This document shows positions 5,178-27,689 of a stretch of 50,466 nt of DNA, piece by piece. The notes beneath the pieces are model-generated. The model did not search any database. It was not told the DNA's origin and was given only the letters and a program-made list of their open reading frames with translations. The translations under genes and the position numbers were made by a program. The stretch lies in assembly GCA_945873305.1 (NCBI GenBank), contig CAMCCX010000007.1, forward strand, positions 1-50,466, read 5' to 3'. Source of the DNA: Akkermansia muciniphila. GTDB lineage: Bacteria > Verrucomicrobiota > Verrucomicrobiia > Verrucomicrobiales > Akkermansiaceae. Numbering within the stretch: the first letter of the stretch is position 1; each line of letters opens with the position of its first letter.

Positions 5178-8100
5178 ATGAAAAGTTTGGCATGGATCTG
5201 TCTCGTTGCATTTTTCACCCCCCTCCAGCTGATGGCTCAAGACCCGGATGCCCTCCGCAAGGAGCGCGACAAGCTCACGGAGCGCGGGATGTGGCGCGAG
5301 GCTTTGGATCTATACGGGGAAAAGCTGATGCCGATCTCGGACGAGAAATCCGATCTGGACTTGAGAATGGCCGTCGAGGTGATCCGTGGACAAAACGTGT
5401 GGGGCGAGTTTGATGAACTCGTCGAGCGCGCGATTTCCACTCACCCGGACAACGCGATGCTGCTGGTGCAGGCGGCGGCGTCCTATCAGTCCGCACCCCA
5501 TTCCGGCCGGCTGGTCGCCGGGGAGTTCGAACGCGGCGGCGGGCCGCGATACGGGGGGCGTTCGATGGGACCGGATGAGGTTCCTGAAGCCACAGCCGGT
5601 TCATGGGTGAATACGTTTTATCGCGATCAGGTTCGCTCGTTTCAGCTTTTCCGCGAGGCCGTCGGCAAATCCAAAAACGACGCCGAGCGCTACCGGGGGT
5701 GGGAGCTGTTCTCGGGGATTCGACGCGAGGAGGCACGCGGAGAGGCTTGGAAACTTCAGACTCTCACGCCCCTCGAAAATCTACCCGAATGGGGCGAACC
5801 GGGACCGCAAGGCGGCACCGAAGGCGCGCCTTGGGCGAAGGACGGACCGGTGCTTTACGAAGTCCCCGCATCCTGGGAGGCCGCGAAAAACGACGGCGAA
5901 CGCTGGCGTTTCGCCCTCGCGGAACGGGTCCGGCTCAAGCCTGAAACGGCGGCGAGCGTCACACTCGATCTCGCGGATTTCTCAAATTCCCAGTTCGGCA
6001 CGGAAACCCTCTCGTCATACGGATGGTGGCGTCAGCAGGATCCGGACAGCGCCAAGGGGATTCTCGAAATGGACACGCTCGCCGAGGACGAGTGTCTCGC
6101 GAAAACCTCGGATGGTGTCCGCCGTTTCAAGCTGCCTGCCAGCCATCATTTCATCGCGCTCTATCGGTCGATCATGAACGAAAACGAGCATGCCGGAGAC
6201 AATCTCGTTCAAGTGTTCCTCAATCGCCGCCAATACGACAAGGCCCGCGAAGTGTTGGCGCAAACCATCGCCAAGCACGGCCCCGGCACTAACGACCATC
6301 GCACCAAGCTCCTCAAACAAATCACCGGCAACTGGGGGCGCTTCGAGCCCGCCGAAACCGTGCCCGCCGGAGTGAAACCCAAGCTGCCGCTGGTGTTCCG
6401 CAATGCCGCCGCCATCAAACTCACCGCCGCACCCGTGGACATGGAGGCGGTTCTCAAGGACACGCTCGACTACCTGAAAAGCAACCCGCGCGAGCTCGAC
6501 TGGCAGCGCCTCAATCCCTCGCAGATCGCCAGCCGTCTTATCCAGGAAAGCCCCTCCAAGTTTATCGGCAAAACCGCCGCCAACTGGGAGACGAAACTCA
6601 GTCCGCGCGACAAGCACCGCGACACCCGCGTCGATCTGGAGATGCCGCTCGACAAGGCCGGTGCCTGGTGGATCAGCGGAAAAATGGACGGCGGTAATGA
6701 GTTCCACACCCTCGTCTGGATCGTGGATTCCGTGCTGGTGCAGAACGACGTGGGCGGCAAGAAGCAGTGGTGGCTCGCCGATGCCGCGGGCGGTGCGCCG
6801 GTGGCAGGAGCGGACATCGAATTTTTCGGCTACCGGACCATCCATCTCGAACGGAAGAACCCTCTGGAACGGCGGATGGAAGTCCGCACCAAGGAATTCA
6901 ACCGCACCACCGATGACGACGGCAAGACGCTGCTCAAGCCGGGTGATTATGAAAGTGAGCTCCAGTGGCTGGCAATCGCCAGCAAGCCGGATCGCTCGCC
7001 CGCGTTTTTCGGATTCCGCCCCTATCACATCCAGGTTCCCCAGCTTGAAAACGGCAACCGCGACATCACCTACGGCATCTCGGACCGGCCGCTCTACAAA
7101 CCCGGCGACACCGCGCACTTGAAATTCTATCTGCGCAATGTCGGCTATTTCGAGCCGAACGAAGAGGCCTACGCGAACCAATCCGGTACGCTCATCCTCT
7201 CCAATGGCCGCGGCGAGGAGGTGCTGAAAATCCAAAATCTCAAGACCGACGCGCTCGGTGCGGTGGAGAGCGAAGTCATCATCCCCAAGGACGCCGTGCT
7301 CGGGAACTGGAGCGCGGTTTTCCGGATTGGCGAGCGGATTTCCTCTTTCGTTAGCCTGCGCGTGGAGGAATACCGCAAGCCGGAATACGAAGTGAAAGTC
7401 GAGGCTCCGGACGAGCCGGTGAAGCTCGGTGATAAATTCACGGCGACGGTGAAGGCGACTTATTTCCACGGCTCGCCGGTGCGGAATGCCAACGTCGAGA
7501 TCATCGTGAAACGCGGCTCCATCGGCGAGCGCTGGTTCCCGGTCTGGCGCTGGGATTGGCTCTATGGCCCGGGTGCCTGGTGGAACGGCAGCGAGGCGTC
7601 GTGGCACCCGACATGGAAAAGCTGGGGCTGCACTCCGCCGCATCCGCCGTGGTGGCAGGAGAACCGCTGGACGCCGGATGAGTTAGTGATCAAGCGCAAT
7701 GTCGCGATCGGTCCCGACGGCACGGCGAAGATCGAAATCGACACCGCGCCCGCCAAGGAAATCCATGGCGACATGGATGCGAAATACACCATCGAGGCCC
7801 GCGTGGTGGACGCGTCCCGGCGCGAGGAGCGCGGCACCGGCGCGGTCATCGCCGCGCGCAAGCCGTTCGAGGTCGCGGTGTGGACGGACCGCGGCCACAC
7901 CCGCGCCGGGGAACAGGTGGAGGCGACGATTTCCGCCGCGAGTCTGTCGGGAAGACCGGTCGTTGGAGCGACGGGCAAGCTCGTGATTTTCAGGCTAACG
8001 ACTGGCGATGGCGGCCGGATCGAGGAGAAGGAAATCCAGGCGTTTCCGGTGGAGACCGACGCGCAGGGTGAAGTGAAGCAGCGCTTCGCCGCGCCCGCCA

Positions 8101-11100
8101 CTGGCCAGTATCGCCTCGCGGCCAGCCTCTCTATCAAGGACGGCGATCCGGTGGAAGGCGCGACGATTCTCAACATCCACGGTCCCGGCCGCGCCGATCC
8201 TGATGCGTGGCATTTCGGGCCGTTGGAAATCATCGCCGACAAGGCGTCCCACGCGCCCGGCGAGACGGTGAAACTCCGCGTCAACAGCGACAAGGAAAAC
8301 GCCAATGTATGGCTCTTCCTCCACATCGCAGGCTCCGCCGGACGCGAGGCCCGCCGCATCCAGCTCGATGGCAAGAGCCTGGAAGTCGATGTCCCCCTCG
8401 ATCTGCGAGACATGCCGAACATGTTCATCGAGGGCGTCAGCGTCCACGGCGCGAAGGTTCACACCGCGGTCCGGCAGATTTTGCTGCCGCCGGTTAGCAA
8501 GGTGGTCGAGGTCACGCTCGAGCCCGCCAAGAGCCGGGTGAAACCGCGCGAAACCTCCGCCCTGCGCGTCACCTTGCGCGATGCCGAGGGCAAGCCGGTC
8601 ACCGGTACCGCCGTGCTGACGGTGTATGACAAATCGCTCGAAGCGATCACTGGCGGCTCTAACGTCGGGAAGATCCACGAGAATTTCTGGACGTGGAAGA
8701 ACAGCTATTACCCGGGAGTTGGTGGCGATTCGATCCCGGACTCGCCGGGGAATCTGCTCCGTCCGAAAGTCGTCGGGATGCAGTCGCTCGGGCGTTTTGG
8801 CGACGAGGGACGCTATGCGGCCAAGGGCATGGGAGGCGGTGGTTTCGGCGCGAGGTCCAGGATGATGGAGAGTGATCCATTTAGCGATTCTTCTGGTGGT
8901 GCTCCGATGATGGCGATGGCCGCGTCCGCAGCTCCGGAACAAAAAATGGATCGAGAAGGTGATCCCTTTGCAGGCACCGCCGCACCCGCCGCGAATCCGA
9001 TCCTCGTCCGCAAGGATTTCGCCGACCTCTTGAAATGGTCCGGCGCGATCCAGACGGATGCCGATGGTCGCGCCGAAATCCCGCTGGAATTTCCGGACAA
9101 CCTCACCACGTGGAAAGCCCGCGTCTGGGTAATTGGCAAGGGCTCGCAGGTCGGCGAGGGCAGCGCGGAAATCATCACTTCCAAGGAACTGCTGGTCCGC
9201 CTGCAAGCGCCGCGGTTTCTGGTGGAGCGCGACGAATCGGTCTTCAGCGCGGTCGTTCAGAACGATCACGACGCACCGAAGACGGTGAAGGTTTCCCTCG
9301 AACTGGAAGGCTCTAACTTGGAAGCGATCGATGGCGCGCCGCAGACCGTGGAAATCGCCGCGAAGTCGGAAGCCCGCGTTGATTGGCGGGTCAAGGCACT
9401 GCGCGAAGGCGAGGCGACGTTCCGGATGCGCGCGGATTCCGGCGACGATGGCGACGCCGTCGAGCGCAAGCTGCCGGTGCTCGTCCACGGCATGGCGCGC
9501 CAGGACGCGTGGAGCCGCGCGGTCGAACCGGGTGCGGATTCCGCGAAAATCCAAATCGAAGTGCCGGAGCAACGGCGGCCGGACCAATCGAAGCTAACCG
9601 TCCGCTTCTCACCCACCATCGCCGGCGCGGTGGTGGATGCGATTCCCTATCTGGCGAGCTATCCGCACGGCTGCACCGAGCAGACGCTGAACCGCTTCGT
9701 GCCGGCCGTGATCGCCCAACAGATGCTGCGCGATCTCAAGATCAACCTCGCCGAAGTGAAGGCGAAGCGCACCAACCTCAACCCGCAGGAACTCGGCAAT
9801 GCCGCCGACCGCGCGGCGCAGTGGAAGCAATGGCAGACGAACCCGGTCTTCGACGAGGTGGAGATGGAGAGGATGGTCGCGAAGGGGATCGAGAAACTCA
9901 TGTCGATGCAGAACGCCGACGGCGGTTGGGGCTGGTTTTCCGGCTACGGCGAGACCTCCTATCCGCACACCACGGCGGTCGTGACGCATGGCTTGATAGT
10001 CGCGAAGCAGAACGGCGCGAAAATTCCCGATGCCATGCTCAACTCCGGCATCGCCTGGCTGATGGCCTACGAGCGCAAGCAAACCGCCGCGCTCCAACTC
10101 CACGTCGAGCGCGAGGCCTTGCGCAAGGAAGGCAAAAAGATCAAGGACTCGAACAAGTATGAGAAGTCCACTTGCGACGCGATGGATGCGTTTGTCCGAC
10201 TCGTCCTCGGCAAGGCCGCGCGCGACTCGGAGCCGATGCTGGCCTTCCTCTATCGGGACCGCGTCAGTTTGCCGGTTTACGCCAAGTGCCTGCTAGGGCT
10301 CGAACATCATCGCAAGGGCGACGAGGCGCGGCGCGATGAAGTGATGAAAATCATTTCCCAATACCTCAAGCGCGACGCGGAAAACCAGACGGCTTACCTC
10401 GACCTCCAGAACACGAATTTCTGGTGGAACTGGTATGGCAGCGAGGTCGAGGCGCACGCGTGGTATCTCAAACTGCTCGCCGCCGTGAAGCCGCAGGACG
10501 CGGACACGCGCGGCCTGGTGAAGTATCTGGTGAACAACCGCAAACACGCGAGTTACTGGGAATCCACCCGCGACACCGCGTTCGCGGTCGAGGCGATCGC
10601 CAGCTATTTCAAGGCCAGCGGCGAGGACGTGCCGGAGATGGAAGTGGATGTCCTGCTCGACGGGAAATCGCTGCGCAAGGTCTCCATCAACCGGGAAAAC
10701 CTCTTCACCTTCGACGGCACGGTCGCCCTAACGGGCGATGCCGTGACCACGGGGAAACACGAGGTTGAACTGAGAAAGTCCGGCAAAGGCACGCTTTATG
10801 CCAACGCCTATCTGGAAGTCTTCACCCTTGAGGACAAACTTCGCGCCGCCGGGCTGGAGGTGAAGGTCCAGCGCCGCATTTCCAAACTCATCGCCTTGGA
10901 AAAGGAAACCGAGGTGCCTGATTCCAGCGGATTGATCGCAAAACAACAGGTCGAGCGGTTCCGCCGGGAAGCGCTGGCGGACGGTGCGAAACTCGCTTCC
11001 GGCGACCGCGTGGAGGTGGAACTGATCCTCGAAAGCAAGAACGACTACGAGTATCTGATTTTCTCCGATGCCAAGGCCGCCGGATTCGAGGCGCTCGACG

Positions 11101-11333
11101 CGCTGAGCGGTTACGTCGGCGGCGGTGACGGATTCAGCGCCTACATGGAGCCGCGCGACCGGACGGTGGACTTTTTCATCCGCGCGCTGCCACGCGGGAC
11201 CCACACGCTGCGCTATCAGCTCCGCGCCGAGGCGCCGGGGATTTACAAGGCGCTGCCCGCGACCGCGGAGGCGATGTACGCGCCCGAGCTGAGAGGGAAC
11301 TCGGAGGATCTGAAACTGGAGGTTTTGAAATAA
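5178..11333 (+). CDS. Alpha-2-macroglobulin family protein with thioester domain
   Basis: Bacterial alpha-2-macroglobulins are envelope proteins thought to trap proteases by covalent thioester chemistry. This 2051-residue copy has a signal peptide (cleavage likely after LMA at about residue 20; no lipobox), a TPR-like helical N-terminus, and macroglobulin beta-domains including an MG2-type DRPLYKPGD segment near residue 635. The A2M domain is near residues 1280-1365, and the thioester domain holds GCTEQ with Cys at residue 1499 and Gln at 1502. Residues about 1210-1275, just before the A2M domain, are rich in Gly, Met and Ala and resemble an exposed bait region. It is monocistronic, without the pbpC partner common in Proteobacteria. 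The periplasmic or surface location is inferred. Confidence 0.93.
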
Positions 11334-14052: not shown

Positions 14053-14156
14053 TCGGCAGGAATGAAGCACGAACCGTGCACACCCGCCAGCGAACATGAC
14101 GGATCGTTGAAATTCGCGGAAATTGGTAACCGCGTTTTTCCGTGACAATCCCAATG

Positions 14157-14185
14157 TGCGATATTTACCAGTGGTGGACTTCGCA
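14157..14185 (+). promoter_or_regulatory. Candidate AraC-type operator upstream of the ThuA operon
   Basis: Bases 14157-14185 match 19162-19190, upstream of the AraC gene at 18095-19120, at 22 of 29 positions, including the 12-base core ATTTACCAGTGG. The site ends about 36 bases before the ATG at 14222. Shared sites in front of a regulator and a nearby metabolic operon suggest this is the regulator's binding site. This is inference from sequence match and placement. Confidence 0.5.
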
Positions 14186-14221
14186 AGCATCCGCTTGTTT
14201 CGCGACGTAGGATTCCAAGTC

Positions 14222-15877
14222 ATGAACCTACTGCGCATCTGCCTCGCGTTTGCCGTGTTGTCCTGTTTTGGCACCGCTGCCGACGTTAAACCGCGCGTCC
14301 TCATCCTGAGCGGGGCGAACAACCACGATTGGAAAACCACCACACCCGCGATCCGCGCCGCACTGGAGGAAAGCGGGCGGTTTAGCGTGGATGTTGAGGA
14401 AAACGTCTTCGCCATGACGACTGGATCTTTTGCGCCCTATGCGGTGGTTTTGAGCAATTTCAACACCTTCGGCAAGGACGCGCCCAAGGGTGAGTGGAGT
14501 GCGGAGACGAAGAAGGCGTTCCTCGATCACATGGCCAAGGGGAGGGGACTGGTGATCGTGCATGCGGGCAGCTCGGGGTTTTACGATTGGGCGGAGTTTC
14601 AAAATCTCGCCTGCGGCACGTGGAGAGACGGCACCAGTCACGGTGCGATCCATGTGAACCGCTTGTCCTTTTCCGGCGAGGAGTCACCGATCACCCAAGG
14701 CCTCGCGCCGTTTTGGATTCGCGATGAGTTCTGGCAGAAAATCGCCGTCGCGCGGGGAGCAAAGGCGCTCGCCTCGGTGACGCCGGACCCCGCGTTCAAG
14801 GGCAGCGGAAAACCCGAAAACATCATGTTCACCACGGAATCCGGCGGCGGGCGCGGCTTCGCGATTTTTCTAGGCCACGATGCCGAGGCGATGGGCAATC
14901 CCGCTTGGAGAACCCTGCTCCAGCGCGGCACCGAGTGGGCCGCCACCGGCAAGGTGACCATTCCGCCCGCCAAGAACTGGCCCGCGACGAAGGAGGATGC
15001 GTCGCGCCCCGGCTATTCATGGCTGCGGACCGACACCAGTCTGGCATTGTCTAACGGCGGCAAGACGATCTGGTGCCTGGTCTTCGATCCGGCCCGGCCC
15101 AAGTCCTATTTCCATCCGCTCTCGACGGTGGACGGCAAGGCTCTAACCAGCTTCGAGCCTCCCGATCATCCCTGGCATCGCGGCCTTTGGTGGTCGTGGA
15201 AATGGATCAACGGCCTGAATTATTGGGAAGAGGATCGGGAAACCCACACCAGCGAGGGCGTCACGGAACTAACCGGTGCCACCGTCGACCCGCGGGGCGA
15301 TTTCGGAGCGAGCGCAGAGTTGCGCTTCAGCTACCACCCGCCCGGCCAGGCCGCGGTCATGACGGAACTGCGCAAGCTCTCCATCACCCAACCGGATGCC
15401 GAAGGCCGGTATCGGATCGACTGGACCAGCGAGTTCACCGCGGGAAACGCCCCCGTCACCTTGGGGCGCACTCCTCTGCCGAATGAGGAGAACGGCAAGC
15501 CCTATGGCGGCTATGCGGGCTTGTCGCTGAGGCTTCCTGTCGATTCTAATGGATGGTCGATCCTAACGAGCGAAGGGAAAACCGGTGCGGCCGGCAGCCA
15601 CGGGCAAGGCGCGAGCTGGGTTGATTTTTCCAGTCCCGGCGGGGGAATCGCCATTTGCGATCATCCCGACAACCTGCGCCACCCGTCGCCATGGTATGTG
15701 CATGACAGCCCGCCGATGAGTTTCTTCAGTCCGGCCGTTTTGTTCAATGAGCCACTGGACCTCGCCGCCGGGCAATCGTTGAAACTCAGCTACCGCGTCC
15801 TGATCCACTCCAAACCGATGTCCATCAAGGAAATCGAAACGGTCTGCCACACCTTCGCCGCACCTGCGAAACCATGA
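14222..15877 (+). CDS. ThuA-domain / DUF6807 (PmoA-like) fusion protein
   Basis: The 551-residue protein has a signal peptide (MNLLRICLAFAVLSCFGTAA). Next comes a ThuA domain at about residues 22-245 (VLILSGANNHDW, GLVIVHAGSSGFYDW), a glutamine-amidotransferase-like fold linked to sugar utilisation. The C-terminal half, about residues 270-545, resembles DUF6807/PmoA-like beta-sandwich domains (DHPWHRGLWWSWKWINGLNYWEE). In PVC-group and Bacteroidota genomes these domains sit beside sugar isomerases and oxidoreductases, as here. AGGA lies 9 bases before the ATG at 14222; the longer frame from 14123 would hide the signal peptide. It is first gene of a three-gene operon, and its chemistry is unknown. 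Confidence 0.85.
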   Translation: MNLLRICLAFAVLSCFGTAADVKPRVLILSGANNHDWKTTTPAIRAALEESGRFSVDVEENVFAMTTGSFAPYAVVLSNFNTFGKDAPKGEWSAETKKAFLDHMAKGRGLVIVHAGSSGFYDWAEFQNLACGTWRDGTSHGAIHVNRLSFSGEESPITQGLAPFWIRDEFWQKIAVARGAKALASVTPDPAFKGSGKPENIMFTTESGGGRGFAIFLGHDAEAMGNPAWRTLLQRGTEWAATGKVTIPPAKNWPATKEDASRPGYSWLRTDTSLALSNGGKTIWCLVFDPARPKSYFHPLSTVDGKALTSFEPPDHPWHRGLWWSWKWINGLNYWEEDRETHTSEGVTELTGATVDPRGDFGASAELRFSYHPPGQAAVMTELRKLSITQPDAEGRYRIDWTSEFTAGNAPVTLGRTPLPNEENGKPYGGYAGLSLRLPVDSNGWSILTSEGKTGAAGSHGQGASWVDFSSPGGGIAICDHPDNLRHPSPWYVHDSPPMSFFSPAVLFNEPLDLAAGQSLKLSYRVLIHSKPMSIKEIETVCHTFAAPAKP

Positions 15878-22281: not shown

Positions 22282-23253
22282 ATGATTTCAACCTCGGTCA
22301 TGAAGTTCTTTCTTTGTGCGGCTGTTGCCGCGGCGGCAGCGTTGTCGGTGAGTTGTGAGAGGGGTGGCCGGCAAGCGGAGTGGTGGGAGGGCGAGCGGGA
22401 GAGAATCGAGTTCAGCCAACAACTGGAACTGAAGAAATACCGCCTCGAACAGGTTTACACGGAGGACTTCGAGGAGCTCGAAGGGCTGCGGTTGAAGATG
22501 GATGCCGCGACTTCATCGCTGCGCGTGTTGCGCCAGCAACAACTGGCTTTGAGCAATGAGGTGGCCTCGCTGGAGGGAGGGCAGGCCGAATTCCGGGCCT
22601 CGACGATCCGTGACCAGCGTCATCGCGCGATGGGAGCTTCTTTCGAAACGCTCCGACTGGTGTCCGGTCGGACCTTCGAGAAGGTGAAGGTTTCGGCCAT
22701 TGATGACGCCGGGGTGACCATCCGGCATGCGGACGGATCCGCGAGGTTGCGGTTCGCGGATTTGACCCCCGAGCAGCAGGTGATTTTCGGCTTGGAAGCG
22801 GATTTGGCGCTCGCGGCGACAGGGAAGGAGGCCGGGGAGGCGGCCTTGTACGAGCGCTGGGTGGATGACCGGATGGCAATCGTCCACGAGCAGCAAAAAG
22901 CCGACAAGGCAACCGCCAGACGCGAAGACCAAGCCGCGCGGGAAAGGCGGTCACAACTCGCGTCCCAACAGGCGATGGCGTCATCAACCCGGGCGCTTGC
23001 CCAACCGGCGACCATCAGCGGCAACAGATCTTGGGGATACTCTAGGTATTACTCGGGTTACCGGACCTATCAGCCGACTTATCGGAACGTTTATGTCAGC
23101 ACCCCGAGCTACCGGAATGACTTTCGGAGTGCGGTTTCCGTCCGAGCTCCTTTTCCTCAGTTCACCCGCTCGACCGGGACCGGCTGCGCGTCGCCTGTCA
23201 TGATACCGAGATGCCGATCTTTCGCCGATACAGCCCTTTCCCCGACTCCATGA
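22282..23253 (+). CDS. Coiled-coil lipoprotein with 'IRHxDG' domain
   Basis: No named family is recognised. The 323-residue product starts with a lipoprotein-like signal peptide (ALSVSC, Cys at residue 25; an ATG at 22300 would give a neater signal), followed by a Glu/Leu-rich coiled coil to about residue 125. At 129-169 is a compact motif reading GRTFEKVKVSAIDDAGVT, then IRHADGSARLRFADL. A charged helix follows, then a Tyr-rich segment (about 251-278). The 129-169 motif recurs in the genes at 23596 and 24524. The stop overlaps the next start by four bases. It is probably anchored in the envelope as part of an operon-encoded complex; function unknown. Confidence 0.75.
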   Translation: MISTSVMKFFLCAAVAAAAALSVSCERGGRQAEWWEGERERIEFSQQLELKKYRLEQVYTEDFEELEGLRLKMDAATSSLRVLRQQQLALSNEVASLEGGQAEFRASTIRDQRHRAMGASFETLRLVSGRTFEKVKVSAIDDAGVTIRHADGSARLRFADLTPEQQVIFGLEADLALAATGKEAGEAALYERWVDDRMAIVHEQQKADKATARREDQAARERRSQLASQQAMASSTRALAQPATISGNRSWGYSRYYSGYRTYQPTYRNVYVSTPSYRNDFRSAVSVRAPFPQFTRSTGTGCASPVMIPRCRSFADTALSPTP

Positions 23254-23576
23254 TGTCCAGCCGCCGCTCATTTTCTATTCTCATCCTCGTCGCCCTCGCC
23301 TGTGCTTCATGCAGCGATGATCTGAAGCTGGTGGAAAAACGGGAGCAGCAGAAAGCCGAAATCGCCCGCTTGAAAGGGGAACTCGCCTTGATTGATGAGA
23401 AATTGAAAAATCTTCCTCCCGACGTTTCGGCTGATTTGGCGGTGGCTAAGCAGCTTGCCGAGAAGCAGGCCGCTGAAGTCGCCGGCCTTGAAAATGAAGT
23501 GGCCGATCTGGAGGCTCGAAAGCGCGCTCTACAAAGCGAGTTTGACGCATACCGGGCAAAGTATCAGATCAAATAA
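23250..23576 (+). CDS. Small coiled-coil lipoprotein (108 aa)
   Basis: After a lipoprotein signal (ILILVALACASC, Cys near residue 22), the rest of the 108-residue protein is an almost continuous charged coiled coil rich in Glu, Lys, Leu and Ala. It lacks the IRHxDG motif of its three neighbours. The ATG at 23250 forms an ATGA overlap with the upstream stop (23253), which fixes the start and implies coupled translation. It could be a spacer or partner for the coiled coils of the neighbouring proteins; its small size and form recall Lpp-like envelope lipoproteins, without clear homology. Confidence 0.7.
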   Translation: MMSSRRSFSILILVALACASCSDDLKLVEKREQQKAEIARLKGELALIDEKLKNLPPDVSADLAVAKQLAEKQAAEVAGLENEVADLEARKRALQSEFDAYRAKYQIK

Positions 23577-23595
23577 ACCCTCGAAACAGAAAAGC

Positions 23596-24513
23596 ATGTC
23601 TTTCAGTGATCTGATGTCGAGTGGCCGTGGGCCGGGAGTGATAGGCATGGTGATGGCATTGATCGTGTTACTTGGATTCGGGCTGTTGTTCATGGTGGCC
23701 ACTGATGAGGGCTTTCAGGGTGGTGATCAATCGATTGAGTCTCTAATTGCTCATCAAGCGAAGGACATCGAATTTTCCAAAGGAGCCCTCGAACGAGGAG
23801 TGAAATCGCTCGGCGACGCTCCTGAGCGCATTAAATGGACCAAAGAATTGAATAGTCTGCAGCGGGGCACCCCGGTTTTCAAAGAGCGTATTGTTGCCCT
23901 TGGAGGAAACATTCAATCCAGGAAGGCTGAGGCCGTTCGCGGCGAGAGGGCATTCGAGGACTATAAGAACCAATACCGCGCCCACGTCAGGAGCAAAGCC
24001 AAGGGGGAATCAATGGATACTCTCCAAACTCAAGGTGGAGTCGTTTACAAGAACGTGAATATTCGGGGGGTGACTGCGGTGGGTATCCAGATTCGTCATG
24101 ACGATGGCCATAAGCGGATCCCTTTTGAAGATCTGCCAGCGGCGATGCAGGATTATTACCAGTTCGATCCGAAGCAAAAAGCCGAGGCTGTTACTCAAGA
24201 ACAAGTGGCATGGAATGAGCATGAAGCCGCGGTGTCGGTTGCGAATCTGGCTTCTGATCGCCAGGTTGCGGAACAAGCAGCAAAGGATGCTGAGGCCATA
24301 AGGGAGAAGACACTCCGCTCGATTGCGCTCAAAGAATCACGGACCGAGTCACTGAGTAACGAGATAGAGAGTCTTGAAGCGGCAATTACCAAAGAGATTG
24401 AGAAGAGCATCAGCAACGCACCCCAGATGAGGGCGCAGCTTGCCAATAAGCAGAGCGCTCTAGCGGCACTTTTGGCGGATATAGCTCGCATGAGGGCCGA
24501 TCTATCCAAGTAG
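23596..24513 (+). CDS. Membrane-anchored coiled-coil protein with 'IRHxDG' domain
   Basis: The 305-residue protein has a cytoplasmic tail of about 12 residues, one membrane helix (about residues 13-35, MVMALIVLLGFGLLFMV), a coiled region, and the shared motif at about 147-190 (GGVVYKNVNIRGVTAVGIQ, then IRHDDGHKRIPFEDL). A long C-terminal coiled coil runs from about 195 to the end. The motif's strand-like pattern, GIQIRHDDG hinge and closing DL resemble its two sister proteins. Base composition is somewhat more AT-rich than the surrounding genes. It starts 19 bases after the small lipoprotein gene. No enzymatic residues are apparent; a structural envelope role is inferred. Confidence 0.75.
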   Translation: MSFSDLMSSGRGPGVIGMVMALIVLLGFGLLFMVATDEGFQGGDQSIESLIAHQAKDIEFSKGALERGVKSLGDAPERIKWTKELNSLQRGTPVFKERIVALGGNIQSRKAEAVRGERAFEDYKNQYRAHVRSKAKGESMDTLQTQGGVVYKNVNIRGVTAVGIQIRHDDGHKRIPFEDLPAAMQDYYQFDPKQKAEAVTQEQVAWNEHEAAVSVANLASDRQVAEQAAKDAEAIREKTLRSIALKESRTESLSNEIESLEAAITKEIEKSISNAPQMRAQLANKQSALAALLADIARMRADLSK

Positions 24514-24523
24514 CTGGTTCGCG

Positions 24524-25174
24524 ATGTTATCTGCAGAAGAACATCGCGGAGTTTTCACCTTTTTGGTGGGCATCATTGTGCTGGTCATGACGGGAGTTGG
24601 TCTCTCGCTGTTGGTTGATCGCCGGTTGAAATTTTCTTCGGGGGTTGTTAAAATCCAAAGGGAAATCAGGCAGGATGCCATGGAGCTGGAGCATTTGACT
24701 GCTTTGCATGACGAGCGGTCCCGCATTTTGAAGAAATCAGGATCTAAACCACAACCAGGGGCTGGGGGAGGACGGCTGCTTGCCGAGGAATTGAAAGCCA
24801 TGGATCGGCGGCAAGTTGCTCTCATGGAAATGCGGGGCCAACTTCGCAAGGCGCTTGCATCGCAGGACGGGGGTTTTTCATTTTACCGCGCGGATTACCG
24901 CCGCAAGACATGGTTGGCGGCAGTTGGTGAAAACCTTGGTAATCTCAAAGTGCGCAATGGACGTGAATACTTGCAGGCGACGATCACGCGGGTGACCGAT
25001 GTCGGGTTGGAAATCCGGCATGAGGATGGTATCGCACGAATCCAAGCCCCTGACCTGGATTCGAGGTTGCAGGATCGTTTCCAATGGAAGGATGAAGAGC
25101 GCCGAAAGGTTTTGGAGAAGGAGCGAGATCACCTGGAAGGTAAGCCCGGTAAACCCGGCGTGAGCGATTCCTGA
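24524..25174 (+). CDS. Membrane-anchored protein with 'IRHxDG' domain (216 aa)
   Basis: This is the third member of the local family. A single membrane helix (about residues 10-32, VFTFLVGIIVLVMTGVGLSLL) is followed by a helical region to about 115 and the shared motif at about 146-188 (GREYLQATITRVTDVGLE, then IRHEDGIARIQAPDL). It ends in a charged Lys/Glu-rich tail. Unlike its sister at 23596 it lacks the long C-terminal coiled coil. It begins 10 bases after that gene, so all four genes from 22282 form one operon. Function unknown. Confidence 0.75.
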   Translation: MLSAEEHRGVFTFLVGIIVLVMTGVGLSLLVDRRLKFSSGVVKIQREIRQDAMELEHLTALHDERSRILKKSGSKPQPGAGGGRLLAEELKAMDRRQVALMEMRGQLRKALASQDGGFSFYRADYRRKTWLAAVGENLGNLKVRNGREYLQATITRVTDVGLEIRHEDGIARIQAPDLDSRLQDRFQWKDEERRKVLEKERDHLEGKPGKPGVSDS

Positions 25175-25292: not shown

Positions 25293-25715
25293 ATGCCCGG
25301 TCGCGAAGATCTCAAGAACCTGTCCCTGCTCGGAAAATCCGAGAACCGTCTGCCTGCCAGTCCCGACGAGGCGGAACTCGATGTTTTCCCGAATCTGCGG
25401 CCCGGCCGACGCTATTGGATCACCCTGAATTGTCCCGAATTTTCCTCGCTGTGCCCGGTCACCGGCCAGCCGGACAGCGCGAAAATCGTCATCCGCTACG
25501 TCCCCGGCGACGTCTGCGTGGAAACGAAGAGTTTGAAATTCTACCTCGCCTCGTTCCGGAACCAGCCGTCTTTCAATGAGGAAATCGTCAACCGGATCCT
25601 CGACGATCTGGTGGCCGCGATGAAGCCGCAGGAAATCGTCGTCCGCGGCGAGTTCGCCCCGCGCGGCGGCATCCAGCTGACGACGGAAGCGACCTACCCG
25701 GACACGCCGAGATGA
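25293..25715 (+). CDS. queF: NADPH-dependent 7-cyano-7-deazaguanine reductase
   Basis: QueF reduces the nitrile of preQ0 to the amine preQ1, the last step before insertion into tRNA. The 140-residue protein is of the short unimodular type. The catalytic Cys lies in FSSLCPVTGQPD, followed by the family signature VETKSLKFYL and the substrate-binding Glu in FNEEIVNRI. The start at 25293 (MPGREDL) gives the normal N-terminus LSLLGKSEN. Its stop overlaps the queC start by four bases (ATGA at 25712-25715), so it heads a queF-queC-queD-folE2 operon. Confidence 0.95.
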   Translation: MPGREDLKNLSLLGKSENRLPASPDEAELDVFPNLRPGRRYWITLNCPEFSSLCPVTGQPDSAKIVIRYVPGDVCVETKSLKFYLASFRNQPSFNEEIVNRILDDLVAAMKPQEIVVRGEFAPRGGIQLTTEATYPDTPR

Positions 25716-26401
25716 AAGTCTGCGTGTTGCTGAGCGGCGGGATGGACTCGGTCGCCGCGTTTTACGAGGTGATCGCCACGCACGAGGTGGTGGCGTGTTT
25801 GTCCTTCGACTACGGTGCCAAACATAACGCCCGCGAGATTCCGTTCGCGAAACTGCATGCGGAGAGAAACGGCGTTCTCCATCAGGTCATCCCGCTGGAT
25901 TTCATCAACCAGCTGTTCAAATCCGACCTGCTCCAGTCCGGCGGCGCGATCCCGGACGGCCATTACGCCGAGGAGTCGATGAAGCAAACCGTGGTCCCGT
26001 TCCGCAACGGCATCATGCTCGCCATCGCCACCGGCTACGCGGAAAGCGTGGACGCGGAAGGCCTGGTGATCGCCGCGCACTCCGGCGACCACGCGATCTA
26101 TCCGGACTGCCGCGAACCGTTCATGCAGGCGATGGCCACCGCGATGAGCGAGGGGACTTACGCGAAAATCCAGCTGCTGCGCCCGTTCATCGCCATGGAC
26201 AAGACGGCGATCGCCCGCCGCGGCGTGGAGCTCGGCATCGATTTTTCCGAAACCTGGTCCTGCTACAAAGGCGGCGCGATCCACTGCGGCACCTGCGGAA
26301 CTTGCGTCGAACGGCGCGAGGCGTTTATTCTCGCCGGCCTGCCGGATCCCACGCGCTACGAGCAAACGCCGGCACTTCCGACGCTTCCGACGCTCGACTG
26401 A
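25712..26401 (+). CDS. queC: 7-cyano-7-deazaguanine synthase
   Basis: QueC uses ATP and ammonia to turn 7-carboxy-7-deazaguanine into preQ0. The 229-residue protein has the N-type ATP pyrophosphatase loop LLSGGMDS near residue 8, the FDYGAKHNARE segment, VPFRNGIM, and a C-terminal zinc site (CYKGGAIHCGTCGTC). It is co-translated with queF upstream and followed 10 bases later by queD. Confidence 0.95.
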   Translation: MKVCVLLSGGMDSVAAFYEVIATHEVVACLSFDYGAKHNAREIPFAKLHAERNGVLHQVIPLDFINQLFKSDLLQSGGAIPDGHYAEESMKQTVVPFRNGIMLAIATGYAESVDAEGLVIAAHSGDHAIYPDCREPFMQAMATAMSEGTYAKIQLLRPFIAMDKTAIARRGVELGIDFSETWSCYKGGAIHCGTCGTCVERREAFILAGLPDPTRYEQTPALPTLPTLD

Positions 26402-26411
26402 ATTTTTCCCC

Positions 26412-26873
26412 ATGCCTTATCGAATCTGCAAATCCCTCGAAGTGGAAAACGGCCACATGCTCACCAAGCACCCTGACAAGTGCCGGTTCCCGCATGGCCA
26501 CACCCGCAAGGTTGAGTTCGTCATCGAGGCGGACGAGCTGGATGGCAATGAGATGGTCTGTGATTTCAAAATCATCAAGGACGCCGTCGGCGAGTGGCTC
26601 GACAGCTTCGACCACGCCATGTGCATGAACACCGCGGACCCGGCTTACGCGGATTTCAAAGCCCGCTACGGCGACCGCGTGATCGGTTTCGAAAACCAGG
26701 ACCCGACCACCGAGCTGATGGCGCGCACGATTTTCGACCACACGGAAAATGCCCTTGCCGCGTATGCCGCGCGCACCGATACCCGCTACCCACTCCAGCC
26801 CGGCGTCCGGCTCGTCCGCGTGCGCGTCTGGGAAACGTCCTCCTCGTGGGCGGAATACGAAAAATCTCTCTGA
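26412..26873 (+). CDS. queD: 6-carboxy-5,6,7,8-tetrahydropterin synthase
   Basis: QueD converts dihydroneopterin triphosphate to 6-carboxytetrahydropterin, the second step of the deazaguanine pathway. The 153-residue protein carries the zinc-binding His residues and catalytic Cys in GHMLTKHPDKCRFPHGHT, the conserved VCDFKIIKDAV stretch, the FDHAMCMN segment, NQDPTTELMA and a C-terminal VRVWET with the active-site Glu. It lies between queC and folE2, three bases before the latter, consistent with receiving its substrate from FolE2. Confidence 0.93.
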   Translation: MPYRICKSLEVENGHMLTKHPDKCRFPHGHTRKVEFVIEADELDGNEMVCDFKIIKDAVGEWLDSFDHAMCMNTADPAYADFKARYGDRVIGFENQDPTTELMARTIFDHTENALAAYAARTDTRYPLQPGVRLVRVRVWETSSSWAEYEKSL

Positions 26874-26876
26874 ATC

Positions 26877-27689
26877 ATGTCCCAGAAATCCGCATTGCCC
26901 GACATCCAGGCGACCCCCGACACCCGCGGCATCGCCATCGACCAAGTCGGCGTTTCCGATCTCCGCTATCCGATCCAGGTGCTCGACCAGGACGGGAAAG
27001 CGTTTCCCACCGTCGCGAAAATCTCGATGTCGGTGCATCTGCCACACCATTTCAAGGGCACGCACATGAGCCGCTTCCTCGAAGTGCTGAGCAAGCACGA
27101 GGGCGAGGTGACCATGCGCACGCTGCCGGATATCCTCCACGATTTAAAAAAACGCCTCGACGCCGAGGAAGCGCACATCGAGGTGGCGTTCACCTATTTT
27201 GTCACGAAAAAGGCCCCCGTCTCCGGCTCGCCCGCCAAGGTCGGCTGCGATTGTGTTTTCAAAGGAACCTCCAACGGCACCGTCGATGACTTCGTGCTCT
27301 GCGTCACTGTCCCCGTCACCACGCTGTGCCCGTGCAGCAAGGAAATCAGCGAATACGGCGCGCACAACCAGCGCGGCTACGTCACCCTGGAAGTCCGCCC
27401 GAAGGCGAAGGACGGCGGCTGGGAACTGATCCTGATCGAGGACTTGATCGAAGTCGCCGAGAAATCCGGCTCCGCTCCCGTTTACGCGCTGCTCAAGCGC
27501 ACCGACGAGCGCTTCGTCACGATGCAGGCCTACGACAATCCGGTCTTCGTCGAGGACGTCGTTAGGAATGCCGCCGCCCTGTTGCGCGCCGACAAGCGCG
27601 TTTCCTCCTTCACCGTCAAGACGGTGAACCATGAGAGCATCCACGACCACAACGCCTTCGCGACGATCATCGGCCACGCCGCCGACTAG
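26877..27689 (+). CDS. folE2: GTP cyclohydrolase FolE2 (type IB)
   Basis: FolE2 converts GTP to dihydroneopterin triphosphate, the entry point to both folate and queuosine; it tolerates metals other than zinc, unlike FolE. The 270-residue protein shows VSMSVHLP-like strands, the active-site Cys segment TTLCPCSKEISEYGAHNQRG and a C-terminal HESIHDHNAFA. Its place directly after queD, three bases away, suggests dedication to queuosine supply. Whether another folE exists in the genome cannot be seen. Confidence 0.94.
   Translation: MSQKSALPDIQATPDTRGIAIDQVGVSDLRYPIQVLDQDGKAFPTVAKISMSVHLPHHFKGTHMSRFLEVLSKHEGEVTMRTLPDILHDLKKRLDAEEAHIEVAFTYFVTKKAPVSGSPAKVGCDCVFKGTSNGTVDDFVLCVTVPVTTLCPCSKEISEYGAHNQRGYVTLEVRPKAKDGGWELILIEDLIEVAEKSGSAPVYALLKRTDERFVTMQAYDNPVFVEDVVRNAAALLRADKRVSSFTVKTVNHESIHDHNAFATIIGHAAD

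What the first reader, a model, noticed from the sequence alone, without database searches (positions are those of the whole stretch)
22282..25174. Four-gene envelope cassette built on a repeated, unnamed 'IRHxDG' domain
Three proteins in one tight operon share a motif of about 42 residues: G-x-x-[FY]-x(3)-[IV] strands, then G-[VIL]-x-IRH-x-DG-x-x-R-[LI], then DL and Q a few residues on. The copies lie at residues 129-169 (gene at 22282), 147-190 (23596) and 146-188 (24524). The domain sits on different anchors: a lipoprotein signal in the first, a membrane helix in the other two. All have coiled coils, and a fourth small coiled-coil lipoprotein is coupled by an ATGA overlap. Mixed outer- and inner-membrane anchors with coiled coils would suit a complex spanning the periplasm. 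I cannot link the motif to a named domain.
Basis: partly seen in the sequence, partly recalled or inferred. Interest (0 to 1): 0.65.

Follow-up and report, generated by a model that had tools for sequence, protein, structure and literature searches.

The report
Four-paralog envelope operon in Verrucomicrobiota
Four neighbouring genes that arose by ancient duplication encode two membrane-anchored proteins and two lipoproteins with long coiled coils, three of them carrying a small unnamed barrel domain; they probably form a scaffold in the envelope of these bacteria, but this has not been tested here.

Summary
Three proteins carry the same ~54-residue domain at the stated places, and a fourth small lipoprotein is ATGA-coupled. 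Two things change. (1) This is not one motif shuffled onto unrelated anchors: profile comparisons indicate that all four genes are paralogs sharing a coiled-coil module, and the fourth (P2) stops where the barrel would begin. (2) The domain is not confined to this operon: 96 of 240 sampled genomes of the phylum have it, mostly in exported proteins, some fused to papain-like peptidases. It matches no Pfam or NCBIfam model. AlphaFold gives a confident small SH3/Sm-like barrel (pLDDT 93), and a profile comparison suggests, without proving, distant kinship with SHD1 (PF03983). Of 58 P3-type ORFs examined, P2 lies directly upstream in 46, P4 directly downstream in 39 and P1 before P2 in 26. Anchors are split consistently: lipobox in P1 and P2, one membrane helix in P3 and P4. 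My best reading is a lineage-specific periplasmic scaffold or tether whose barrels bind an envelope peptide or partner. The function is inferred; patchy presence argues against an essential role. New variant of a known kind (secreted SH3-fold envelope proteins).

The parts
22282..23253 (+). P1: predicted lipoprotein (signal from ATG 22300, MKFF...LSVSC), coiled coil, SH3/Sm-like barrel, Tyr/Arg-rich C-terminal tail
   Evidence: ORF and translation; lipobox pattern in 12 of 14 P1 rows; orthologs
22630..22809 (+). barrel domain copy in P1 (IRHADG)
   Evidence: E 1.3e-22 with a profile trained on it
23250..23576 (+). P2: small predicted lipoprotein that is nearly all coiled coil; no barrel; ATGA overlap with P1; ends ...FDAYRAKYQIK
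   Evidence: matches the pre-barrel coiled coils of P3, P4 and P1 (prob 96, 94, 87)
23596..24513 (+). P3: membrane helix 13-36, helices 47-73 and 75-134, barrel 139-176, helices 192-267 and 275-304
   Evidence: mean pLDDT 89.6, pTM 0.50
24001..24180 (+). barrel domain copy in P3 (IRHDDG)
   Evidence: predicted fold (pLDDT 92.9)
24524..25174 (+). P4: membrane helix, coiled coil, barrel; lacks the C-terminal module (SVPGSLETW-type box) present in 11 of 14 aligned P4 rows
24923..25102 (+). barrel domain copy in P4 (IRHEDG)

Best explanation
The four genes are one operon of ancient tandem paralogs. P3 and P4 are held in the inner membrane by one N-terminal helix; P1 and P2 are lipoproteins, most likely of the outer membrane. 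All four share a homologous coiled-coil segment by which they would pair into one hetero-complex standing in the periplasm. P1, P3 and P4 each present a small SH3/Sm-like barrel just after that coiled coil, which most likely binds a peptide-like ligand: peptidoglycan stem peptide, a partner tail, or each other. P2 is the paralog reduced to the coiled coil. Net effect: a lineage-specific scaffold or tether linking inner membrane, cell wall and outer membrane. Shown here by computation: paralogy, operon conservation, anchor split, predicted barrel fold, purifying selection. Inferred: outer-membrane location, complex formation, ligand and tethering role.
For: Paralogy: P3 vs P4 align over 290 columns (E 1.2e-36) and P3 vs P1 over 175 (E 1.3e-19). 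The P2 coiled coil matches the pre-barrel coiled coils of P3, P4 and P1 (prob 96, 94, 87); P2 reversed against six segments reaches at most 8.3, and P2 against the P4 and P1 post-barrel segments 4.8 and 0.2. Old and kept apart: P1 and P4 each form one side of a branch on the tree, and 13 of 14 P3 rows group together (few columns). Co-inheritance: P2 directly upstream in 46, P4 directly downstream in 39 and P1 before P2 in 26 of 58 P3-type ORFs (recounted; loci chosen because they have P3). Anchors: lipobox in 12 of 14 P1 and 8 of 9 P2 rows; strong hydrophobic helix in 14 of 14 P3 and 14 of 14 P4 rows. Long helices and a central barrel in P3. Export: 31 of 33 domain ORFs of the phylum have a hydrophobic 12-mer somewhere before the domain, against 14 of 42 window ORFs in their first ~70 residues (not quite the same test). 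Fusion of the domain to papain-like peptidases (Pfam Peptidase_C1 in 3 of 16 scanned) parallels the secreted bacterial SH3-fold and chromo-like domains that PMC5906684 (abstract and passages seen) proposes bind cell-wall peptides.
Against: No partner, ligand or location was tested. Presence is patchy: 16 of 37 genomes of the same genus (own included) have a P3 match at E <= 1e-20, and 116 of 195 family genomes at E <= 1e-10, so it is not an essential tether. Among four genomes of genus g149 looked at, two have a lone P3-like protein with a lipoprotein-like N-terminus (L147, L148) and two have P2-P3-P4 (L149, L150). L091, L107 and L160 have P3 without a P2 hit. P2 vs the P3 post-barrel coiled coil also scores prob 67.5, and other non-equivalent coiled-coil pairs reach 25, so part of the similarity may be generic coiled coil. 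On the tree one P3 row (L045) falls beside P4, and the membrane-anchored g18 proteins that I call P3-like fall beside P1 (support 97/78). Lipoprotein sorting rules in this phylum are not known to me, so outer-membrane placement of P1 and P2 is an assumption. The window's own P4 lacks the C-terminal module.
Confidence: 0.5

Rival explanations
1. The proteins are separate envelope adaptors, each binding peptidoglycan or an envelope protein through its barrel, without forming one spanning complex; the operon merely co-expresses duplicated adaptors.
For: The same domain occurs alone in many small exported proteins; P3-like genes occur without P2 or P4; P4 C-termini are missing in several genomes.
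Against: Gene order and the P2-P3 pairing are kept in 46 of 58 cases, all four keep a homologous coiled coil and P2, which has no barrel at all, has the lowest dN/dS in the one pair compared.
Confidence: 0.22
2. P2 acts like Braun lipoprotein (Lpp), fixed to peptidoglycan through a C-terminal lysine, and P1, P3 and P4 are accessory.
For: P2 is a short coiled-coil lipoprotein that ends in Lys in 5 of 9 aligned rows, the window's included.
Against: The last residue is Arg in 2 of 9 and Asn in 2 of 9, and Glu, Leu or Asp in some more distant copies; by the known Lpp reaction (recalled) these could not be joined through a terminal Lys.
Confidence: 0.08
3. The operon encodes the periplasmic and outer-membrane parts of a transport or secretion machine (lipid, protein or efflux) whose energised partner lies elsewhere in the genome.
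For: Inner-membrane coiled-coil proteins with outer-membrane lipoproteins are usual in such machines (recalled; PMC10897342 on PqiABC and PMC8277102 seen only as search listing with abstract start).
Against: No transporter gene was seen to travel with the operon: its flanks differ between the relatives mapped, and no MCE, membrane-fusion or efflux family matches any of the four above its cut-off.
Confidence: 0.12
4. The paralogs are a functionally trivial family expansion with no shared role.
For: Tandem expansions occur (six-gene arrays in L163 and L164; P2-P3-P2-P3 in L106) and presence is patchy.
Against: Purifying selection on all four in the pair compared; the paralog types keep largely separate clades and their order across genera.
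Confidence: 0.08

Closest known systems
SHD1 (SLA1 homology domain 1, Pfam PF03983), an SH3-fold domain also present in this phylum (29 of 115 genomes)
   Same: Collinear 54-column profile match (P 1.6e-4, prob 50.7 with the broad domain profile; P 3.9e-4, prob 35.7 with A7; 30 reversed or column-shuffled controls at most 0.64); the Sla1 SHD1 structure 2hbp is among the Foldseek matches (rank 27 for the domain, E 0.41, prob 0.66; rank 9 for full P3, E 0.47, prob 0.77)
   Different: No member scanned matches PF03983 even at E 1 and it is not among the families listed for the 16 diverse members (first 25 of 28 shown); profile-against-sequence searches are not significant in either direction (best E 0.22); the R-x-W-T start of the fetched SHD1 members is absent and the conserved His of the domain is not one of theirs
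Sm/LSm/Hfq small barrels
   Same: Best structural matches: archaeal Hfq-like chains by Foldseek (prob up to 1.00, E 0.08 at best, TM by target about 0.7) and VIA-align (Z 6.8, rmsd 2.6, 58 aligned); a helix precedes the barrel in both
   Different: Z below 8 may mean only a common arrangement; 12-14% identity; four strands of three or more residues here; exported and on coiled-coil stalks; no Sm or Hfq Pfam match listed
Secreted bacterial chromo-like and SH3 domains (PMC5906684; abstract and passages seen)
   Same: Exported SH3-fold domains, tandem copies, fused to peptidases
   Different: The chromo-like family there conserves aromatic-cage residues, which were not examined here; the word Verrucomicrobia does not occur in that paper's main text
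YgdI/YgdR lipoproteins (E. coli; 2jn0)
   Same: A small exported barrel; Foldseek rank 35 (E 0.47, prob 0.63)
   Different: A single small domain, no coiled coil, no operon of paralogs (recalled)
Phage lambda spanins Rz/Rz1 and Braun lipoprotein Lpp
   Same: Inner-membrane coiled-coil protein paired with a lipoprotein (spanin); coiled-coil lipoprotein (Lpp). Analogy only; PMC5295617 and PMC8824477 seen as search listing with abstract start
   Different: A chromosomal operon of four paralogs kept across genera; no PHROG match at E <= 0.01 except P2 to an unnamed family (E 0.0015)

Membership tests
SHD1 (PF03983) | Pfam gathering score 23.7 bits reached | tested here: not met
   No PF03983 match at E <= 1 for the 4 window proteins or the 39 domain rows; not among the 25 of 28 families shown for 16 diverse members
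SHD1 (PF03983) | Profile-level homology along the whole domain | tested here: inconclusive
   hhalign P 1.6e-4, prob 50.7 over 54 collinear columns, controls <= 0.64; profile vs sequence not significant, best E 0.22
SHD1 (PF03983) | SH3-like barrel fold | tested here: inconclusive
   Model pLDDT 92.9; 2hbp found with E 0.41, prob 0.66, rmsd 5.0; 2hbp not among the 50 VIA-align rows shown
SHD1 (PF03983) | Conserved Trp of the R-x-W-T start seen in the fetched SHD1 members | tested here: not met
   No Trp at that place in the 39 rows of A7; SHD1 members
Sm/LSm/Hfq | Sequence match to Sm/Hfq models | tested here: not met
   No such Pfam match at E <= 1
Sm/LSm/Hfq | Sm fold | tested here: inconclusive
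   Best Z 6.8, Foldseek best E 0.08
Sm/LSm/Hfq | Ring oligomer | not testable with these tools
   Only single chains can be predicted here
Lpp (Braun lipoprotein) | C-terminal lysine for peptidoglycan linkage | tested here: not met
   Lys in 5 of 9 P2 rows (the window's included), Arg in 2, Asn in 2: met in the window, not conserved
Spanins (Rz/Rz1) | Phage lysis context | tested here: not met
   queF-queC-queD-folE2 directly downstream; no named PHROG; no plasmid hit for P3 at E <= 0.001
MCE / membrane fusion / efflux adaptors | Match to their Pfam or NCBIfam models | tested here: not met
   nothing above cut-off; P2 matches a HlyD model weakly (E 0.059), as coiled coil

The most novel reading that the evidence does not exclude
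P1, P3 and P4 assemble their Sm-like barrels into a periplasmic hetero-oligomeric ring, as LSm paralogs do in RNA biology, held between the two membranes on coiled-coil stalks, with P2 as a barrel-less zipper subunit: an envelope-spanning machine of its own kind in Verrucomicrobiota.
Probability: 0.08. Interest if true: 0.8.

Novelty: new variant of a known kind. Interest (0 to 1): 0.45.

Why it matters
Verrucomicrobiota, probably including the gut genus Akkermansia, have an envelope whose tethering proteins are, to my knowledge, hardly described. A conserved cassette of four paralogs, half lipoproteins and half inner-membrane proteins, is a concrete candidate for such a scaffold and gives four genes to delete or tag. 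The unnamed barrel domain is widespread enough in the phylum (96 of 240 sampled genomes) to deserve a family model of its own, which would give a common label to many proteins that Pfam and NCBIfam do not label over that stretch.

Tried and rejected
Pfam, NCBIfam and PHROGs gave no family for the domain; the many weak hits of P2 and P3 look like coiled-coil noise. PDB by sequence: nothing better than E 0.25, a 16-residue match to trypsin inhibitors. Streptococcal histidine-triad (Zn-binding) domain: weak Pfam hits in 3 of 39 rows (best E 0.0051) and 6csl/2cs7 in the Foldseek lists; set aside because the domain has one conserved His, not a triad. S1 RNA-binding (E 0.043 for P4; one of 39 rows): below cut-off. 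LA_0442/LA_0875 N-terminal domain (Leptospira model): P1 at E 0.14, below cut-off, not followed. 2hbp (SHD1) is not among the 50 VIA-align rows shown. Mobile or phage origin: no plasmid hit for P3, no named phage family; phage records were not searched. A frameshift as the cause of the short P4: judged unlikely, since the queF gene begins 118 nt downstream (ATG 25293; 91 nt if TTG 25266), too little for the ~110 missing residues, and short P4s that end soon after the barrel recur in other genomes. RNA families in the window: none at gathering score. Promoter and terminator scans: at chance level. Literature: four searches meant to find a named or described form of this domain or operon showed none in their listings (10 or fewer rows each, the listed papers not opened except PMC5906684); the library lacks most subscription journals. 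Two searches on Akkermansia envelope proteins and one on YgdR/YgdI gave no lead that I followed. Distribution outside the phylum was not tested; the one attempt on viral contigs failed. I could not name genus g18; that it is Akkermansia is inferred from family, genome size and completeness.

Rows dropped: of 48 domain copies, 39 went into A7; the 9 left out are near-copies of L034 from L033 and L035 (5), L027:7492, L037:6807, L038 and L039. Of 80 extended copies (48, 32), 64 went into A9. The window's own copies are in all these sets.
Full report
OBSERVATION. A search with P3 alone finds P4 (E 4.7e-13) and P1 (E 1.5e-5) and nothing else at E <= 0.001 in the 3.06 Mb genome. The window is contig 7 of a draft genome. 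Genomes placed in its genus by the genome search have contigs of the same length as public records titled Akkermansiaceae, Verrucomicrobiaceae and, once, Akkermansia muciniphila; more distant hits are titled Luteolibacter, Haloferula and Roseibacillus. In one pairwise comparison with the nearest relative all four genes are under purifying selection, and P2, the gene without the motif, has the lowest dN/dS.

WHAT THE GENES ARE. Profile comparisons show more than a shared motif. P3 and P4 align over 290 columns, P3 and P1 over 175. The coiled coil before the barrel matches between P1, P3 and P4 (prob 91.5 to 97.6), and P2 matches it too (prob 96, 94 and 87 against P3, P4 and P1). Controls: P2 reversed against six segments stays at or below 8.3; P2 against the P4 and P1 post-barrel segments gives 4.8 and 0.2; other non-equivalent segment pairs reach at most 25; but P2 against the P3 post-barrel helix reaches 67.5. 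P2 ends in a Y-x-x-x-Y box (FDAYRAKYQIK) that corresponds to the box just before the barrel in P3 (FEDYKNQYR) and P4 (FSFYRADYR). So P2 is best read as the fourth paralog, cut off at the barrel. On a tree of 64 copies P1 and P4 each form one side of a branch and 13 of 14 P3 rows group together, the fourteenth (L045) falling beside P4; few columns are available.

CONSERVATION. The order P1-P2-P3-P4 recurs in relatives with otherwise different flanks. Among 58 P3-type ORFs in 56 loci, P2 is directly upstream in 46, P4 directly downstream in 39 and P1 before P2 in 26; the loci were selected for having P3, and some are cut by contig ends, so these are co-inheritance rates, not prevalence. Prevalence: 116 of 195 genomes of the family have a P3-like protein at E <= 1e-10, and 16 of 37 of the same genus (own genome included) have a P3 match at E <= 1e-20. 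It is therefore accessory, not universal. In genus g18 (probably Akkermansia, by inference) a protein with membrane helix, coiled coil and barrel scores best against the P3 profile and is preceded by a small coiled-coil lipoprotein. Two cautions: on the tree these copies fall beside P1, not P3 (support 97/78), and the lipoprotein matches the P2 profile only moderately (prob 77) and was not found by the P2 HMM at E 1e-3.

ANCHORS. A lipobox pattern is present in 12 of 14 P1 and 8 of 9 P2 rows; P3 and P4 each have a strong membrane helix in 14 of 14 rows, with a lipobox-pattern match in 1 of 14 each. Two P3-like proteins of genus g149 begin like lipoproteins (L148 flagged by a simple lipobox pattern, L147 by eye), whereas two other genomes of that genus have P2-P3-P4, so anchors can change.

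THE DOMAIN. AlphaFold on 64 sequences gives helix, four strands, two helices with pLDDT 92.9; full-length P3 has a membrane helix, long helices on both sides of the barrel and pTM 0.50, so the relative placement of parts is uncertain. No PDB match passes E 0.001. The best are Hfq/Sm-like barrels (E 0.08, prob 1.00; VIA-align Z 6.8), below the level that would show kinship. SHD1 (2hbp) is in the Foldseek list (E 0.41). A profile of 30 SHD1 stretches from the same phylum matches the domain profile collinearly (P 1.6e-4, prob 50.7; prob 35.7 with the narrower A7; at most 0.64 in 30 controls), while profile-against-sequence searches do not (best E 0.22). I therefore call it SHD1/Sm-like in fold and not a member of either family.

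DISTRIBUTION. 96 of 240 genomes drawn from the phylum have the domain at E <= 0.001. In 31 of 33 ORFs examined a hydrophobic segment lies before it; the two exceptions are a truncated ORF and one cut at a locus edge. For comparison 14 of 42 called window ORFs have such a segment near the N-terminus. It occurs alone in small exported proteins, in tandem copies (L110, L111), before papain-like peptidases and with ankyrin repeats. PMC5906684 (abstract and passages seen) describes similar habits for other secreted bacterial SH3-fold domains and proposes binding of cell-wall or matrix peptides; that is the ground for my ligand guess.

MECHANISM. Two lipoproteins and two inner-membrane proteins with homologous coiled coils, co-inherited in fixed order, are best explained as one periplasmic hetero-complex with barrels as binding heads. 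Shown by computation: paralogy, order, anchor split, predicted fold, selection. Inferred: outer-membrane sorting, complex, ligand, tethering. I put 0.5 on this reading; separate adaptors (0.22) and a transport accessory (0.12) are the main alternatives.

WINDOW-SPECIFIC. P4 of this genome is 216 aa and lacks the C-terminal module with the SVPGSLETW-type box found in 11 of 14 aligned P4 rows. Short P4s that end soon after the barrel occur in several other genomes, so that module may be dispensable.

VERDICT. A real, conserved, lineage-specific operon of paralogs with an unnamed domain; more ordinary than a new machine built on an unknown motif, because the domain is common in the phylum and looks like one of the small SH3/Sm-like barrels, but of unknown function and testable.

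Noticed in passing
25293-27689 +: queF-queC-queD-folE2, a compact queuosine-precursor operon, directly downstream of the cassette (Pfam); the closest relative L023 has an unrelated ~430-aa gene there instead.
   Followed up: partly
5178-11333 +: 2051-aa bacterial alpha-2-macroglobulin (MG2, MG3, bait region, A2M, TED, bMG10).
   Followed up: no
14123-15877 +: Protein joining a ThuA domain to DUF6807.
   Followed up: no
24524-25174 +: P4 is about 100 residues shorter than most orthologs and lacks their conserved SVPGSLETW-type module.
   Followed up: yes
L050, L051, L059, L065, L066: The same domain at the N-terminus of papain-like cysteine peptidases elsewhere in the class (Pfam Peptidase_C1 matched 3 members, where L050, L051 and L065 were scanned; L059 and L066 judged by eye).
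   Followed up: partly
L110:4216-5208, L111:3500-5083: Exported proteins with three tandem copies of the domain.
   Followed up: no
L163:3495-7584, L164:887-5730: Six-gene arrays: an extra P2-like and short P4-like pair next to P1-P2-P3-P4.
   Followed up: no
L106:4396-6950: A P2-P3-P2-P3 arrangement in another genus of the family.
   Followed up: no
L028:2111-2842, L037:7754-9023: P3 appears broken in two genomes (an in-frame stop; two pieces), with P1, P2 and P4 present. Draft assembly error is possible.
   Followed up: no
L073: A record titled Akkermansia muciniphila (MAG) carries the closest relative found of this operon, with 61% P3 identity; the species label looks doubtful.
   Followed up: no
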